From the NCBI RefSeq assembly GCF_003044185.1, contig NZ_PYYB01000001.1, forward strand, positions 1,240,001 through 1,304,000: a DNA stretch of 64,000 nt, written 5' to 3'. The DNA is from Paraconexibacter algicola. GTDB lineage: Bacteria > Actinomycetota > Thermoleophilia > Solirubrobacterales > Solirubrobacteraceae. Numbering within the stretch: the first letter of the stretch is position 1; every line of letters starts with the position of its first letter. Shown in pieces: positions 31,470 through 35,022 of this stretch. Below the pieces are notes generated by a model. The model was not told where the DNA came from. It was given only the letters and a program-made list of their open reading frames with translations, and made no database searches. Made by a program: the position numbers and the translations under genes.

Positions 31470-32063
31470 GTGCCGTTCAACCGCCCGATCAGTCCCCGCC
31501 TGCGCCTTGACGGCGAGCGCACCGCGATCCGCCCGTTCGCGGCGCGCGACCTCGACGACCTGCTCGCGCTGCGCCAGGCCAACCGCGCGTTCCTGGAGCC
31601 GTACGAGTCGACGCGCGACGCGCGCTTCTTCACGGCGGAGGGCCAGTCGCGCGAGCTGCGCCTGGACCGGGAGGCGTGGACGACCGGGCAGGGCTACGGC
31701 TTCGCGATCCTCGACACGACCGGTGAGGTCGACCGGCTGATCGGCCGGATCGCGGTGGCGAACGTCGTGCTGGGCTCGTGGCGCAACGCGACGATCGGCT
31801 ACTGGGTCGACGAGGCCTCGGGCAGCCGCGGTCACGCGACCGAGGCGGTCCAGCTGGCGCTGCGGTTCTGCTTCGAGGAGCTGGGGCTCCACCGCGTCCA
31901 GGCGGCGGTGATGCCGCACAACGAGCGGTCGCTGCGGGTGGTCGGCAAGTGCGGCCTGCGGCAGGAGGGCGTCGCGCTCGGCTACCTGGAGATCAACGGG
32001 CGCTGGGAGGACCACGTGATCTTCGCGATGACGCTGGAGGAGTGGCGGGCGCGGCAGTCTTGA
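31470..32063 (+). CDS. GNAT N-acetyltransferase, RimJ/RimL type
   Basis: This 197-residue acetyltransferase opens with PRLRLDGERTAIRPFAARDLDD. The acetyl-CoA loop is EASGSRGHATEAVQLALRFCFE, followed by LGLHRVQAAVMPHNERSLRV. RimJ/RimL relatives acetylate ribosomal protein N-termini or amino sugars; the substrate here is not known. Translation starts at GTG 31470, 20 nt after the ABC permease stop. Confidence 0.87.
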   Translation: MPFNRPISPRLRLDGERTAIRPFAARDLDDLLALRQANRAFLEPYESTRDARFFTAEGQSRELRLDREAWTTGQGYGFAILDTTGEVDRLIGRIAVANVVLGSWRNATIGYWVDEASGSRGHATEAVQLALRFCFEELGLHRVQAAVMPHNERSLRVVGKCGLRQEGVALGYLEINGRWEDHVIFAMTLEEWRARQS

Positions 32064-32066
32064 TCC

Positions 32067-32092
32067 GTGACCATACGGTGCCGTATGGTCAC
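32067..32092. promoter_or_regulatory. 26-bp palindromic operator, probable TetR site
   Basis: Two perfect 12-bp arms (GTGACCATACGG, 32067-32078, and CCGTATGGTCAC, 32081-32092) flank TG. The palindrome contains a TATGGT -10 at 32084-32089, 6 nt before the ATG of the MBL gene. A bound dimer would block a leaderless promoter. The TetR repressor encoded two genes on is the likely ligand. Confidence 0.85.
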
Positions 32093-32095
32093 GCC

Positions 32096-32890
32096 ATGAC
32101 GGCGTCCGAGATCACCCTCACCCACGTCGGCGGCCCGACCCTCCTCATCGAGGTCGGCGGCTGGCGCATCCTCACCGACCCGACGTTCGACCCCTCCGGC
32201 GGGCGCTACTTCTTCGGCTGGGGCACCTACTCGCGCAAGCTCGCGGCGCCCGCGGTCGCCGCCGCCGACATCGGGCCGCTCGACGCCGTGCTGGTCAGCC
32301 ACGACCACCACGAGGACAACCTCGACGGCGAGGGGCGCAAGCTCCTGCCCGGGGCGGGGACCGTCATCACGACCGTCCCCGGGGCGGGGCGGCTCGGCGG
32401 CTCGACCGTCGGCCTGGTCCCCTGGCAGACCACGACGCTCGAGGCACCCGGAAAGGTCCCGATCGAGGTCACCGCCACCCCGTGCCGCCACGGACCGCCC
32501 GGCAGCAAGCCGATCGTCGGCCACGTCATCGGCTTCGCGCTGCGCTGGGAGGGTCAGGAGCACGGAGTCCTGTGGATCAGCGGCGACACCGTCCTCTACG
32601 ACGGCGTGCGCGAGGTCCCCTCGCGGCTGGACGTCGGCACCGCGGTCCTGCACCTCGGCGGCGTGACGTTCCCGTGGCTCTCCGGGCCGCTGCGGTACAC
32701 GATGAACGCAGCCGAGGGCCTCGAGATGACGCGGCTGCTGCGCCCCCGCACGGTCGTCCCGATCCACTACGAGGGCTGGAAGCACTTCCGCCAGGGCCGC
32801 CCGGCGATCGAGCGGACGTTCGGCGCGGCGAGCGACGTGCCGGCGCCCACGTGGCTCGCGCACGGGACGCCTGCGACGATCGCCGTGTGA
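32096..32890 (+). CDS. Metallo-beta-lactamase-fold hydrolase
   Basis: This 264-residue MBL-fold protein of the UlaG/RomA-like type has the metal motif HDHHEDNLD, with further ligand regions CRHGPPG, ISGDTVLYDG and PIHYEGWKHF. Its substrate is unknown; relatives include N-acyl phosphatidylethanolamine phospholipase-like and lactonase-like enzymes. It is led by the palindromic operator and overlaps the TetR gene by 4 bp, so it is probably the enzyme controlled by that repressor. Confidence 0.85.
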   Translation: MTASEITLTHVGGPTLLIEVGGWRILTDPTFDPSGGRYFFGWGTYSRKLAAPAVAAADIGPLDAVLVSHDHHEDNLDGEGRKLLPGAGTVITTVPGAGRLGGSTVGLVPWQTTTLEAPGKVPIEVTATPCRHGPPGSKPIVGHVIGFALRWEGQEHGVLWISGDTVLYDGVREVPSRLDVGTAVLHLGGVTFPWLSGPLRYTMNAAEGLEMTRLLRPRTVVPIHYEGWKHFRQGRPAIERTFGAASDVPAPTWLAHGTPATIAV

Positions 32891-33474
32891 GCGCCCGTCG
32901 CCCGAGCAAGGACCCCCAGGACTGGATCGACGCCGCCCTCGCCGCCGTGGAGGAGGGCGGCCTCGCCGCCGTCGCCGTCGAGCCGCTCGCCCGGCGCCTG
33001 GGCGTCACCAAGGGCAGCTTCTACCACCACTTCGCCGACCGGCCGGCGCTGCTGCGCGCGATGCTCGCCGCCTGGGAGGACCGCTTCGTCCGCGCCCAGC
33101 AGGTCGAGTTCGACGCGATCCCCGATCCGCGCGAGCGGCTGCACCGCCTGCTGCACCTCGCCTACGTCGACCTGCGGCCGACCGTGATCGTGCGGCTGCT
33201 CGCGGCGGTCGACGACCCCGACGTCGCGCAGGCGCTCGCCCGCGCGGCCGAGGTCCGGATCGGGATGCTCGAGCGGACCTTCCGCCAGCTCGGCCTGCCG
33301 CCGGCGCGCGCCCGTCACCGGGCCGCCGCCACCTACGGCGCCTACCTCGGCCTCGCGCAGCTGCGCACGCAGGTGCCGGATCTCTTCGACTCCCCGCGCG
33401 CACTGCGGGCGCACGTCCGCGACCTGGAGGCCGCGCTGCTGCACGACCTCCCGGACCCGGCGGCGGCGCGCTAG
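32887..33474 (+). CDS. TetR-family transcriptional regulator
   Basis: This 195-residue regulator has an N-terminal HTH at about 10-55: DWIDAALAAVEEGGLAAVAV, then RLGVTKGSFYHHFADRPALL. The remaining helical domain binds an unknown ligand. The GTG overlaps the MBL stop. The 26-bp palindrome at the head of this two-gene unit suggests autorepression. Confidence 0.92.
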   Translation: MSARRPSKDPQDWIDAALAAVEEGGLAAVAVEPLARRLGVTKGSFYHHFADRPALLRAMLAAWEDRFVRAQQVEFDAIPDPRERLHRLLHLAYVDLRPTVIVRLLAAVDDPDVAQALARAAEVRIGMLERTFRQLGLPPARARHRAAATYGAYLGLAQLRTQVPDLFDSPRALRAHVRDLEAALLHDLPDPAAAR

Positions 33475-33971
33475 TCCCCGTCGCCCTCGCCGCCGACGGG
33501 GGCCGGCTGGTCGCCGACCTCCTTCCAGACCGCCTTGGCGCCGGCGTGCCCGGTGCGCACGTCCCAGACGGTGGCGGTCACCGCGCCGAGCAGCACGAGC
33601 GCCGCCAGCGGGGTGGCCAGGCGCTGCAGCCAGGCGCGCCCGGCGCCGTAGCGCAGCGCGCCGATCCAGGCGGCGGTCAGCGCCGCGAGCGCGATCGCGA
33701 TGTTGCGGAGCTGCTCGCCCAGCTCGGTGTGCTCCTCGACCAGGGCGGTCTCGACCACGCGGCGCTCGAGCTTCTCGCCGCTGCCCGCGGCGAGGATGCA
33801 CAGCCCGGCGAGCACGATCGCGAAGCCGACGAGCGGCAGGCCCCACCGCTCACGCAGTCCGGGCTTCAGGACGAGCAGGACGACGCACAGCAGCAGGACG
33901 GGGGTGAAGACGAGCGGCGCGTGCACCAGGAGCGGATGCGCGGGCAGCCCGAAGAGCTTGTCGATCTCCAT
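33471..33971 (-). CDS. DUF2231 membrane protein
   Basis: This 166-residue, four-helix membrane protein starts with the DUF2231 hallmark LPAHPLLVHAPLVFTPVLLL. Further helices lie near 47-65, 88-108 and 118-138. The function is unknown; relatives are often near haem or redox proteins, as hemB is here. The ATG follows a TAGGGT -10 by 6 nt. Its 3' end overlaps the TetR gene by 4 bp. Confidence 0.85.
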   Translation of the reverse strand: MEIDKLFGLPAHPLLVHAPLVFTPVLLLCVVLLVLKPGLRERWGLPLVGFAIVLAGLCILAAGSGEKLERRVVETALVEEHTELGEQLRNIAIALAALTAAWIGALRYGAGRAWLQRLATPLAALVLLGAVTATVWDVRTGHAGAKAVWKEVGDQPAPVGGEGDGD

Positions 33972-34050: not shown

Positions 34051-35022
34051 GTGCCGTTCCCGCAGCACCGCCCCCGCCGGATGCGCGCGACCCCCGCGCT
34101 GCGCTCGCTCGTGCGCGAGACGACGCTCGCCCCGGGCGATCTCGTCCTGCCCCTGTTCGTCCACGAGCAGGACGGTCGCGCGCCGATCGGCGCGATGCCG
34201 GGCGTGGACCGCCTGAGCGTCCAGGACGCCGTCGCCGAGTGCGGGGAGGCGGTCCGCCTGGGCCTCGGCGGCGTGCTCCTGTTCGGGATCCCGGACCACA
34301 AGGACCCGCAAGGCACCCAGGCCTACGCGCCCGAAGGGATCGTGCAGCGGGCGACGCGCGCGATCAAGGCGGCGCACCCCGACCTGCTCGTGATCACCGA
34401 CGTGTGCCTGTGCGAGTACACCGACCACGGGCACTGCGGGCACGTGCAGGAGGACGGCACCGTCGACAACGACGCATCGCTGGAGCTGCTCGTCGCGACC
34501 GCGGTCTCGCACGCGCGGGCGGGCGCCGACGTCGTCGCACCGAGCGACATGATGGACGGGCGCGTCGGCGCGATCCGGGCGGGCCTCGACGCCGCCGGCC
34601 ACCCCACGACACCGGTCCTCAGCTACTGCACGAAGTACGCGAGCGCCTACTACGGGCCGTTCCGCGAGGCGGCGGACTCGACCCCCGCCTTCGGCGACCG
34701 GCGCAGCTACCAGCTCGATCCCGCCAACGGGGACGAGGGGGTGCGCGAGGCGCTCCAGGACGTGCAGGAGGGCGCCGACATGCTCCTGGTCAAGCCGGCG
34801 CTGCCGTACCTGGACCTGATCTGGCGCGTCAAGGAGGCGACCAGGATGCCCGTCGCCGCGTACAACGTGAGCGGCGAGTATGCGATGGTCAAGGCGGCTG
34901 CGGCCGCCGGGCACATCGACGAGCGCGCCGTCGTGCTCGAGACGCTGACGTCGATCCGCCGCGCGGGCGCCGACGTCGTCATCACCTACCACGCGAAGGA
35001 CGCAGCGACATGGCTGACGTGA
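34051..35022 (+). CDS. hemB: Delta-aminolevulinic acid dehydratase (porphobilinogen synthase)
   Basis: HemB condenses two 5-aminolevulinate molecules to porphobilinogen. It has 323 residues. The three-cysteine zinc site is [14 protein letters not shown], so this is the Zn-dependent type. One catalytic lysine lies in [15 protein letters not shown] and the Schiff-base lysine follows in the segment leading to [15 protein letters not shown]. It heads a hemB-ahbAB-hemL order and overlaps the next gene by 13 bp. Confidence 0.95.

What the first reader, a model, noticed from the sequence alone, without database searches (positions are those of the whole stretch)
32067..33474. TetR circuit built on a leaderless promoter
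The 26-bp perfect palindrome contains the -10 and ends 3 bp before the ATG of the MBL gene, whose stop overlaps the tetR start. Repressor, operator and enzyme form a compact self-controlled unit, and the MBL-fold enzyme probably destroys or uses the inducer.
Basis: partly seen in the sequence, partly recalled or inferred. Interest (0 to 1): 0.5.

Follow-up and report, generated by a model that had tools for sequence, protein, structure and literature searches.

The report
Self-regulating TetR repressor and hydrolase pair
A high-GC actinobacterium carries a small enzyme gene and its own repressor behind a mirror-image DNA switch, and the same switch sequence recurs beside related repressors in other bacterial phyla, where it guards different genes.

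Summary
A 28-bp inverted repeat (13-bp perfect arms, TG centre, 32066-32093) fills the gap between a GNAT gene and an MBL-fold hydrolase gene. It contains a TANNNT -10 element whose first T lies 12 bp before the ATG; the MBL stop overlaps the tetR start (GTGA). New evidence that the palindrome is this repressor's operator: its core, CATACG-N4-CGTATG, is matched at >=10 of 12 positions upstream of tetR in 74 of 74 loci of related repressors (mostly Xanthomonadales; also Myxococcota, Solirubrobacterales) against 25 of 1480 shuffles, and in 13 of 14 more distant actinobacterial relatives. Partner genes differ: this MBL, another MBL, fadE, DUF2867, DUF3995. One relative group is TfmR, a published repressor of fadE released by long-chain fatty acids; I found no operator for it in print. 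So this looks like a genuine autoregulated repressor-enzyme unit in an unnamed TetR subfamily with a near-fixed operator and exchangeable targets. The leaderless promoter is likely but unproved; 12 of 22 TetR-less orthologues of the enzyme gene have the same signal. That the enzyme consumes the inducer is untested. Best inducer guess: a fatty-acyl compound (weak).

The parts
31470..32063 (+). Upstream GNAT acetyltransferase (RimJ-like), stop codon 2 bp before the palindrome; boundary gene, not thought part of the unit
   Evidence: Acetyltransf_3 1.4e-22; best NCBIfam hit PRK10809 is below its cut-off; start codon chosen by eye
32060..32065 (+). possible -35 element TTGATC, 18 bp from the -10
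   Evidence: read directly; weak; one search found no consensus promoter
32066..32093 (.). Operator: 13-bp perfect arms with TG centre
32072..32087 (.). Conserved operator core CATACG-N4-CGTATG shared with relatives of the repressor
32084..32089 (+). -10 element TATGGT (TANNNT), 6 nt before the ATG: likely leaderless promoter inside the operator
   Evidence: read directly; spacing as in the leaderless-gene survey (passages)
32096..32890 (+). MBL-fold metallo-hydrolase, 264 aa (UlaG/UPF0173/SaxA/NAPE-PLD-like fold), with HxHHxDN in place of HxHxDH
32887..33474 (+). TetR-family repressor, 195 aa, start overlaps the MBL stop (GTGA); recognition helix TKGSFYHHF

Best explanation
A two-gene, negatively autoregulated operon. 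Without inducer, the TetR dimer sits on CATACG-N4-CGTATG, which overlaps the -10 and spacer, and keeps RNA polymerase off (inferred; operator identity supported by comparison). An inducer that the enzyme acts on, or that accompanies its substrate, releases the repressor; transcription then starts at or next to the A of the ATG (leaderless, inferred), the MBL hydrolase is made, and tetR is translated by coupling through the GTGA overlap, resetting the switch (inferred). The repressor belongs to an unnamed TetR subfamily, TfmR-type proteins included, with a conserved recognition helix and operator and with exchangeable target genes. Inducer: unknown; a fatty-acyl or similar lipophilic compound is the best single guess (about 0.3), by analogy with TfmR.
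For: The motif was taken from the window only. Within 250 bp upstream of the MBL gene it scores 9-12 of 12 in 7 of 7 TetR-paired orthologues (window included) against 6-9 in 23 TetR-less ones. Within about 420 bp upstream of tetR it scores 10-12 in 74 of 74 other loci against 25 of 1480 shuffles and 4 of 370 other stretches of the same loci, 2 of which turned out to be real operator regions (L042, L044). It scores >=10 in 13 of 14 more distant actinobacterial relatives. Reverse test: of 9 fetched non-window loci from a DNA-only scan of 101 genomes, 5 lie beside a TetR with this recognition helix, 2 of them not seen before. In the own genome the window TetR is the sole close subfamily member (9e-93, next 6e-12), and no site within 2 mismatches lies within 1 kb of the other 8 TetR hits. 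GTGA overlap possible in 6 of 8 MBL pairs. For the inducer: TfmR is divergent from fadE, represses it, and its DNA binding is inhibited by C14-C20 fatty acids but not C6 or C8 (passages and one section); 69 of 70 Xanthomonadales-type loci here have a FadE-like gene; the best PDB profile hit of the repressor is FasR, an acyl-CoA-responsive regulator (7.8e-13), and 16 of the 50 Foldseek rows shown are FadR or FasR chains.
Against: No binding, RNA or ligand data. Ligand-domain identity to the Xanthomonadales proteins is only about 33%, so the ligand may differ; the second structural aligner does not single out acyl-CoA regulators (top 2np5, uncharacterised, Z 18.6; NemR 17.2; FasR 15.5). The 70 Xanthomonadales-type loci are close kin, not 70 independent tests, and one search listed only the best 80 of 495 confirmed stretches. 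L175 (8 of 12) lacks the site; L002, L004 and L010 have imperfect sites (9 of 12). MBL-paired repressors other than the window have SKGG[LAVF]YH[HQ][FY], not TKGSFY. 4 of the 9 reverse-test loci, and 5 of 6 further loci around sites with at most 1 mismatch, have no such TetR within the fetched stretch. Only the window locus of the 7 combines operator and leaderless -10. The TfmR paper found no effect of TfmR on its own promoter, so autoregulation here rests on the shared promoter.
Confidence: 0.8

Rival explanations
1. The pair is a xenobiotic or toxic-metabolite sensor: the TetR binds a reactive small molecule and the MBL enzyme hydrolyses it, as SaxA does with isothiocyanates; a co-regulated MFS exporter removes the rest.
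For: SaxA isothiocyanate hydrolase is the best sequence-profile hit of the enzyme in PDB (1.5e-12) and among the top structural hits (6brm, Z 26.0). One of two other own-genome sites with 1 mismatch, GATACGGTGCCGTATG, supplies a possible ATG of an MFS_1 transporter. NemR, known to me (recalled) as an electrophile sensor, is among the repressor's structural matches (Z 17.2).
Against: SaxA is only 17-19% identical over the fold; the HxHxDH motif differs. The MFS site has 1 mismatch and no subfamily TetR beside it; sites with up to 2 mismatches number 22 in the genome against 13 for the reversed control. No MFS link was seen among the other subfamily loci that I annotated.
Confidence: 0.25
2. The enzyme substrate and the repressor ligand are unrelated: the subfamily's operator is widely reused and the MBL gene was simply captured by a repressor that senses something general, such as acyl-CoA status.
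For: The same operator and helix type sit beside fadE, DUF2867, DUF3995 and two MBL families not detectably similar by BLASTP; most fetched MBL1 orthologues have no TetR (23 of 30).
Against: The 8 MBL1-paired repressors form one clade (99/96) and the ligand domains of the other 7 are 51-55% identical to the window's, as expected of a kept, specific pairing.
Confidence: 0.3
3. The palindrome is not an operator but a transcription terminator of the GNAT gene or an RNA hairpin.
For: It lies 2 bp after the GNAT stop and could form a 13-bp stem.
Against: No T-tract; the terminator scan found none; the core recurs at variable positions upstream of the MBL gene or between divergent genes.
Confidence: 0.03

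Closest known systems
TfmR of Xanthomonas (XAC3052), TetR-family repressor of mhpC-fadE and fadH
   Same: Xanthomonadales proteins beside FadE-like genes have the helix TKGSFYWHF (window TKGSFYHHF), 62-69% identity to the window TetR in the DNA-binding part, and CATACG-N4-CGTATG or close variants upstream
   Different: Divergent from fadE, not in an operon with an MBL gene; ligand domain about 33% identical; XAC3052 itself was not fetched, so its identity with these loci rests on gene order and taxon as described in the paper
Other members of the same unnamed TetR subfamily paired with MBL2 (PF00753), DUF2867 or DUF3995
   Same: Operator core, recognition-helix type, one repressor next to one target
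   Different: Divergent pairs, many with two or more operators; other target genes
SaxA isothiocyanate hydrolase, UlaG, UPF0173 and NAPE-PLD MBL-fold enzymes
   Same: Fold match, Z 23-27.5 over 210-246 aligned residues
   Different: 14-23% identity; HxHHxDN replaces HxHxDH
Classic autoregulated TetR-target operons (recalled)
   Same: Palindromic operator over the promoter, repressor controls itself and an enzyme
   Different: Operator coincides with a likely leaderless promoter, so it reaches to 2 bp from the start codon

Membership tests
TetR family of repressors | N-terminal TetR_N helix-turn-helix | tested here: met
   PF00440 2.5e-11, above cut-off; predicted fold matches TetR structures, best Z 18.6
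TetR family of repressors | binds a palindromic operator at its own or its target's promoter | tested here: inconclusive
   strong comparative support, no binding test
TfmR group | operator core and recognition-helix type as in Xanthomonadales loci beside FadE-like genes | tested here: met
TfmR group | divergent from fadE with or without mhpC | tested here: not met
   window TetR is downstream of an MBL gene in the same direction
TfmR group | released by long-chain fatty acids | not testable with these tools
   reported for TfmR
MBL-fold hydrolases (PF12706/PF13483) | family profile and fold | tested here: met
MBL-fold hydrolases (PF12706/PF13483) | HxHxDH metal motif | tested here: not met
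   HxHHxDN in the 16 aligned orthologues; H132, D164, H224 invariant
SaxA isothiocyanate hydrolase | hydrolysis of isothiocyanates | not testable with these tools
   only fold and profile similarity
Leaderless genes | TANNNT about 12 bp (first T) before the start codon | tested here: met
   T at 32084, ATG at 32096; rule from passages of PMC3160421
Leaderless genes | [16 protein letters not shown] at the start codon | not testable with these tools
   no RNA data

The most novel reading that the evidence does not exclude
An unrecognised TetR subfamily spanning Actinomycetota, Myxococcota and Pseudomonadota keeps one recognition-helix type and one operator word (CATACG-N4-CGTATG) while its ligand domains and single target genes have been swapped repeatedly (fadE, two unrelated MBL hydrolases, DUF2867, DUF3995). 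In some members the operator word itself carries the -10 or the start codon of its target gene.
Probability: 0.65. Interest if true: 0.55.

Novelty: new member of a known kind. Interest (0 to 1): 0.42.

Why it matters
It hands a testable operator sequence to a TetR subfamily that seems to include TfmR, whose operator I did not find in print, and would let targets be predicted from DNA across three phyla. It would also give an uncharacterised hydrolase a genetic handle for finding its substrate, and offers a natural set of repressors with one operator and many ligand domains.

Tried and rejected
Rejected: terminator reading (no T-tract). The promoter scan found no sigma-70 consensus promoter; the -10 claim rests on TANNNT spacing alone. 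The outer arms GTGA/TCAC are not part of the motif shared with relatives; only the core is. NCBIfam: all hits of the MBL and TetR proteins are below cut-off. MBL1 and MBL2 are not detectably similar by BLASTP. Regulon: 22 sites within 2 mismatches in the genome against 13 for the reversed control, so no large regulon can be claimed. The background figure for TANNNT looked too low and was recounted: 1 in 8850 positions; these are largely coding sequence, so the contrast is flattered. The 'elsewhere' control (4 of 370) was re-inspected: 2 of the 4 are true operator regions caught by fixed offsets. The tree warns of long branches for L151, L060, L008 and L044 among others, and that such joins may be false. 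Own-genome control: 6 of 8 other TetR hits could be placed (7-9 of 12); two of these are the same gene and one placement is poor. Near-identical L028 was dropped from the count (hence 22, not 23). In one search only E <= 1e-20 matches were taken; only the 30 best loci were fetched, loci of 9 non-window genomes were fetched and 3 others with a site were not. Of those 9, L177, L178 and L179 are loci already known from earlier calls. Gene calls beside distant relatives are rough, and 10 neighbours were chosen. The repressor's predicted model (collected after repeated waits) was compared with PDB: FadR and FasR are frequent in Foldseek's list, but the second aligner ranks others higher, so the ligand class stays open.

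Literature searches. PMC6637906: passages and section 8; PMC10304680, PMC13104628, PMC3160421: passages; PMC11173191: a term search that returned no passage; all others: search listing only. 'Operator of TfmR not in print' rests on these searches and passages of open papers; supplements and subscription papers were not seen.

Full report
What is there. The gap between a GNAT gene (stop 32061-32063) and an MBL-fold hydrolase gene (ATG 32096) is 32 bp and is almost wholly an inverted repeat, CGTGACCATACGG-TG-CCGTATGGTCACG, 32066-32093. It is the longest perfect inverted repeat with a short centre in the window; 20 shuffles of the window gave one of that arm length in total. The right arm holds TATGGT at 32084-32089, first T 12 bp before the ATG. 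The MBL gene (264 aa) ends in TGA overlapping the GTG of a 195-aa TetR gene (GTGA). The tetR stop overlaps by 4 nt a convergent DUF2231 membrane-protein gene. The window's genus includes a genome whose contig length equals that of Paraconexibacter antarcticus, so the host is probably a close relative of it (inference).

Is the palindrome the operator of this TetR? I took the core CATACG-N4-CGTATG from the window and asked where else it occurs. Of the 30 best MBL orthologues fetched from 151 genomes (77 of 151 had some match, many weak), 7, window included, have a tetR relative next door; their best matches within 250 bp upstream score 12, 9, 11, 9, 11, 10, 9 of 12, against 6-9 in the 23 without tetR. 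A named-genome search with the TetR alignment returned the best 80 of 495 confirmed stretches: 6 with the MBL next door (5 of them the same loci under names: a Solirubrobacterales MAG, Patulibacter minatonensis, a Patulibacter MAG, Paraconexibacter antarcticus, Patulibacter medicamentivorans; one new, L035, site 10 of 12) and 74 others: 70 of Xanthomonadales type (one labelled a Rhizobium MAG but placed among Arenimonas in the tree), 3 Myxococcota, 1 Solirubrobacterales. In all 74 the core is matched at 10-12 of 12 within about 420 bp upstream of tetR, against 25 of 1480 shuffled stretches and 4 of 370 other stretches of the same loci, 2 of those 4 being true operator regions. A search of 396 genomes of the phylum gave 14 more distant TetR relatives; 13 have >=10 of 12, one (L175) has 8. 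A reverse test, scanning 101 genomes of the family for the 18-bp DNA word alone, found it in 13, the window's included; of the 9 non-window loci fetched, 5 have a TetR of this helix type within about 200 bp and 4 have none; 3 of the 5 were known from earlier calls. Of 6 further loci around sites with at most one mismatch (own genome and relatives), only the Patulibacter MBL2 locus has such a TetR, so isolated sites may be chance or distant targets. In the own genome no site within two mismatches lies near any of the other 8 TetR hits. In the helix region K42, G43 and Y46 are invariant in 85 sequences and T41, S44, F45 are kept in over 90%, but 70 of the 85 are Xanthomonadales-type, and the other MBL-paired repressors read SKGG.YH. 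Together this makes the palindrome the operator with high likelihood, though no binding was measured.

What the relatives control. 69 of the 70 Xanthomonadales-type loci have a FadE-like gene in the fetched flank, 41 of them also an MhpC-like esterase (tblastn at 1e-8; FadE in L038, L040 and L045 and the esterase in L045 were confirmed with family profiles); the one without, L085, holds only 278 bases upstream of the tetR match. This is the arrangement published for TfmR of Xanthomonas citri, which represses mhpC-fadE and is released by long-chain fatty acids (passages and one section). The paper states that homologues were not found outside Xanthomonadales; the present search finds relatives with the same operator in two other phyla. 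Four loci of the window's order (L044, L131, L132, L151) have the repressor divergent from an MBL enzyme of another family (PF00753), and in three of them (L044, L131, L132) the operator's own ATG is a possible start codon of that enzyme. Of 10 candidate neighbours tested beside the more distant actinobacterial relatives, 5 are DUF2867, 2 are DUF3995, 3 had no family; a Myxococcus relative also has DUF2867 beside it. In the tree the 8 MBL1-paired repressors form one clade (99/96). The DNA-binding part is more conserved than the ligand part: mean ligand-domain identity to the window protein is 53% within MBL1 pairs, 41.5% in MBL2 pairs, 38% in Myxococcota, 33% in the Xanthomonadales group, 26% in the other actinobacterial relatives. 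So operator and helix type are kept while ligand domain and target vary.

Leaderless promoter. A survey of leaderless genes describes TANNNT about 12 bp before the start codon, frequent in Actinobacteria (passages of PMC3160421). The window fits. Of 22 TetR-less MBL orthologues (one near-duplicate dropped) 12 have TANNNT 5-8 nt before an in-frame start; of 7 TetR-paired ones only the window has it; in 8850 positions further upstream there is one TANNNT (largely coding sequence). So leaderless expression is probably an old habit of this enzyme gene, and in the window the operator has been laid over it. In the other TetR-paired loci the operator core ends 24-90 bp before the matched start region, in L004 and L010 across a TTGAC-like -35 (read).

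The enzyme. The predicted model is good (pLDDT 89.3, pTM 0.90) and matches UlaG/UPF0173-type hydrolases, SaxA isothiocyanate hydrolase and NAPE-PLD (Z 23-27.5 over 210-246 aligned residues, 14-23% identity). The 16 aligned orthologues have HxHHxDN instead of HxHxDH, with H132, D164 and H224 invariant. Substrate unknown.

The repressor's ligand. The model of the TetR (pLDDT 92.5) gives many Foldseek matches at similar E-values; 16 of the 50 rows shown are FadR or FasR chains, which are acyl-CoA regulators, and FasR is the best profile hit in PDB. The second aligner puts an uncharacterised Rhodococcus regulator first (Z 18.6), NemR at 17.2 and FasR at 15.5. This mildly favours, and does not settle, an acyl ligand.

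Mechanism. Supported by comparison: operator identity, gene order, overlap possible in 6 of 8 MBL pairs. Inferred: steric block of the promoter, leaderless start, translational coupling, self-repression. Guessed: inducer of fatty-acyl type (about 0.3) or a small electrophile (about 0.25). The claim that the enzyme removes the inducer is plausible and untested.

Verdict. A real, ordinary-looking autoregulated TetR unit; its interest lies in the wider subfamily with one operator and many targets, which I did not find described in the papers I could search.

Noticed in passing
window 32300-32320 (residues 69-75 of the MBL protein): The metal motif is HxHHxDN instead of HxHxDH in the 16 aligned orthologues: one extra residue and Asn for the usual second-metal His.
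   Followed up: partly
L134:1501-1516 (own genome C1:2950951-2950966): A second near-perfect operator, GATACGGTGCCGTATG, whose last three bases could be the start codon of an MFS_1 transporter, with TACGGT 5 nt before it; no subfamily TetR in the fetched stretch.
   Followed up: partly
L131, L132, L044, L151: The same repressor subfamily is divergent from another MBL enzyme (PF00753), with two to four operators; in L131 and L132 a MeaB-like gene follows tetR.
   Followed up: partly
L164, L167, L169, L172, L176, L060: DUF2867 genes lie beside members of this repressor subfamily, with operator sites near their starts; no paper holding both 'DUF2867' and 'TetR' was found.
   Followed up: partly
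window 33471-33971: The tetR stop overlaps by 4 nt the end of a convergent DUF2231 membrane-protein gene.
   Followed up: no
window 34051-35022: The next gene looks like delta-aminolevulinate dehydratase (HemB) by recalled motifs; not tested.
   Followed up: no
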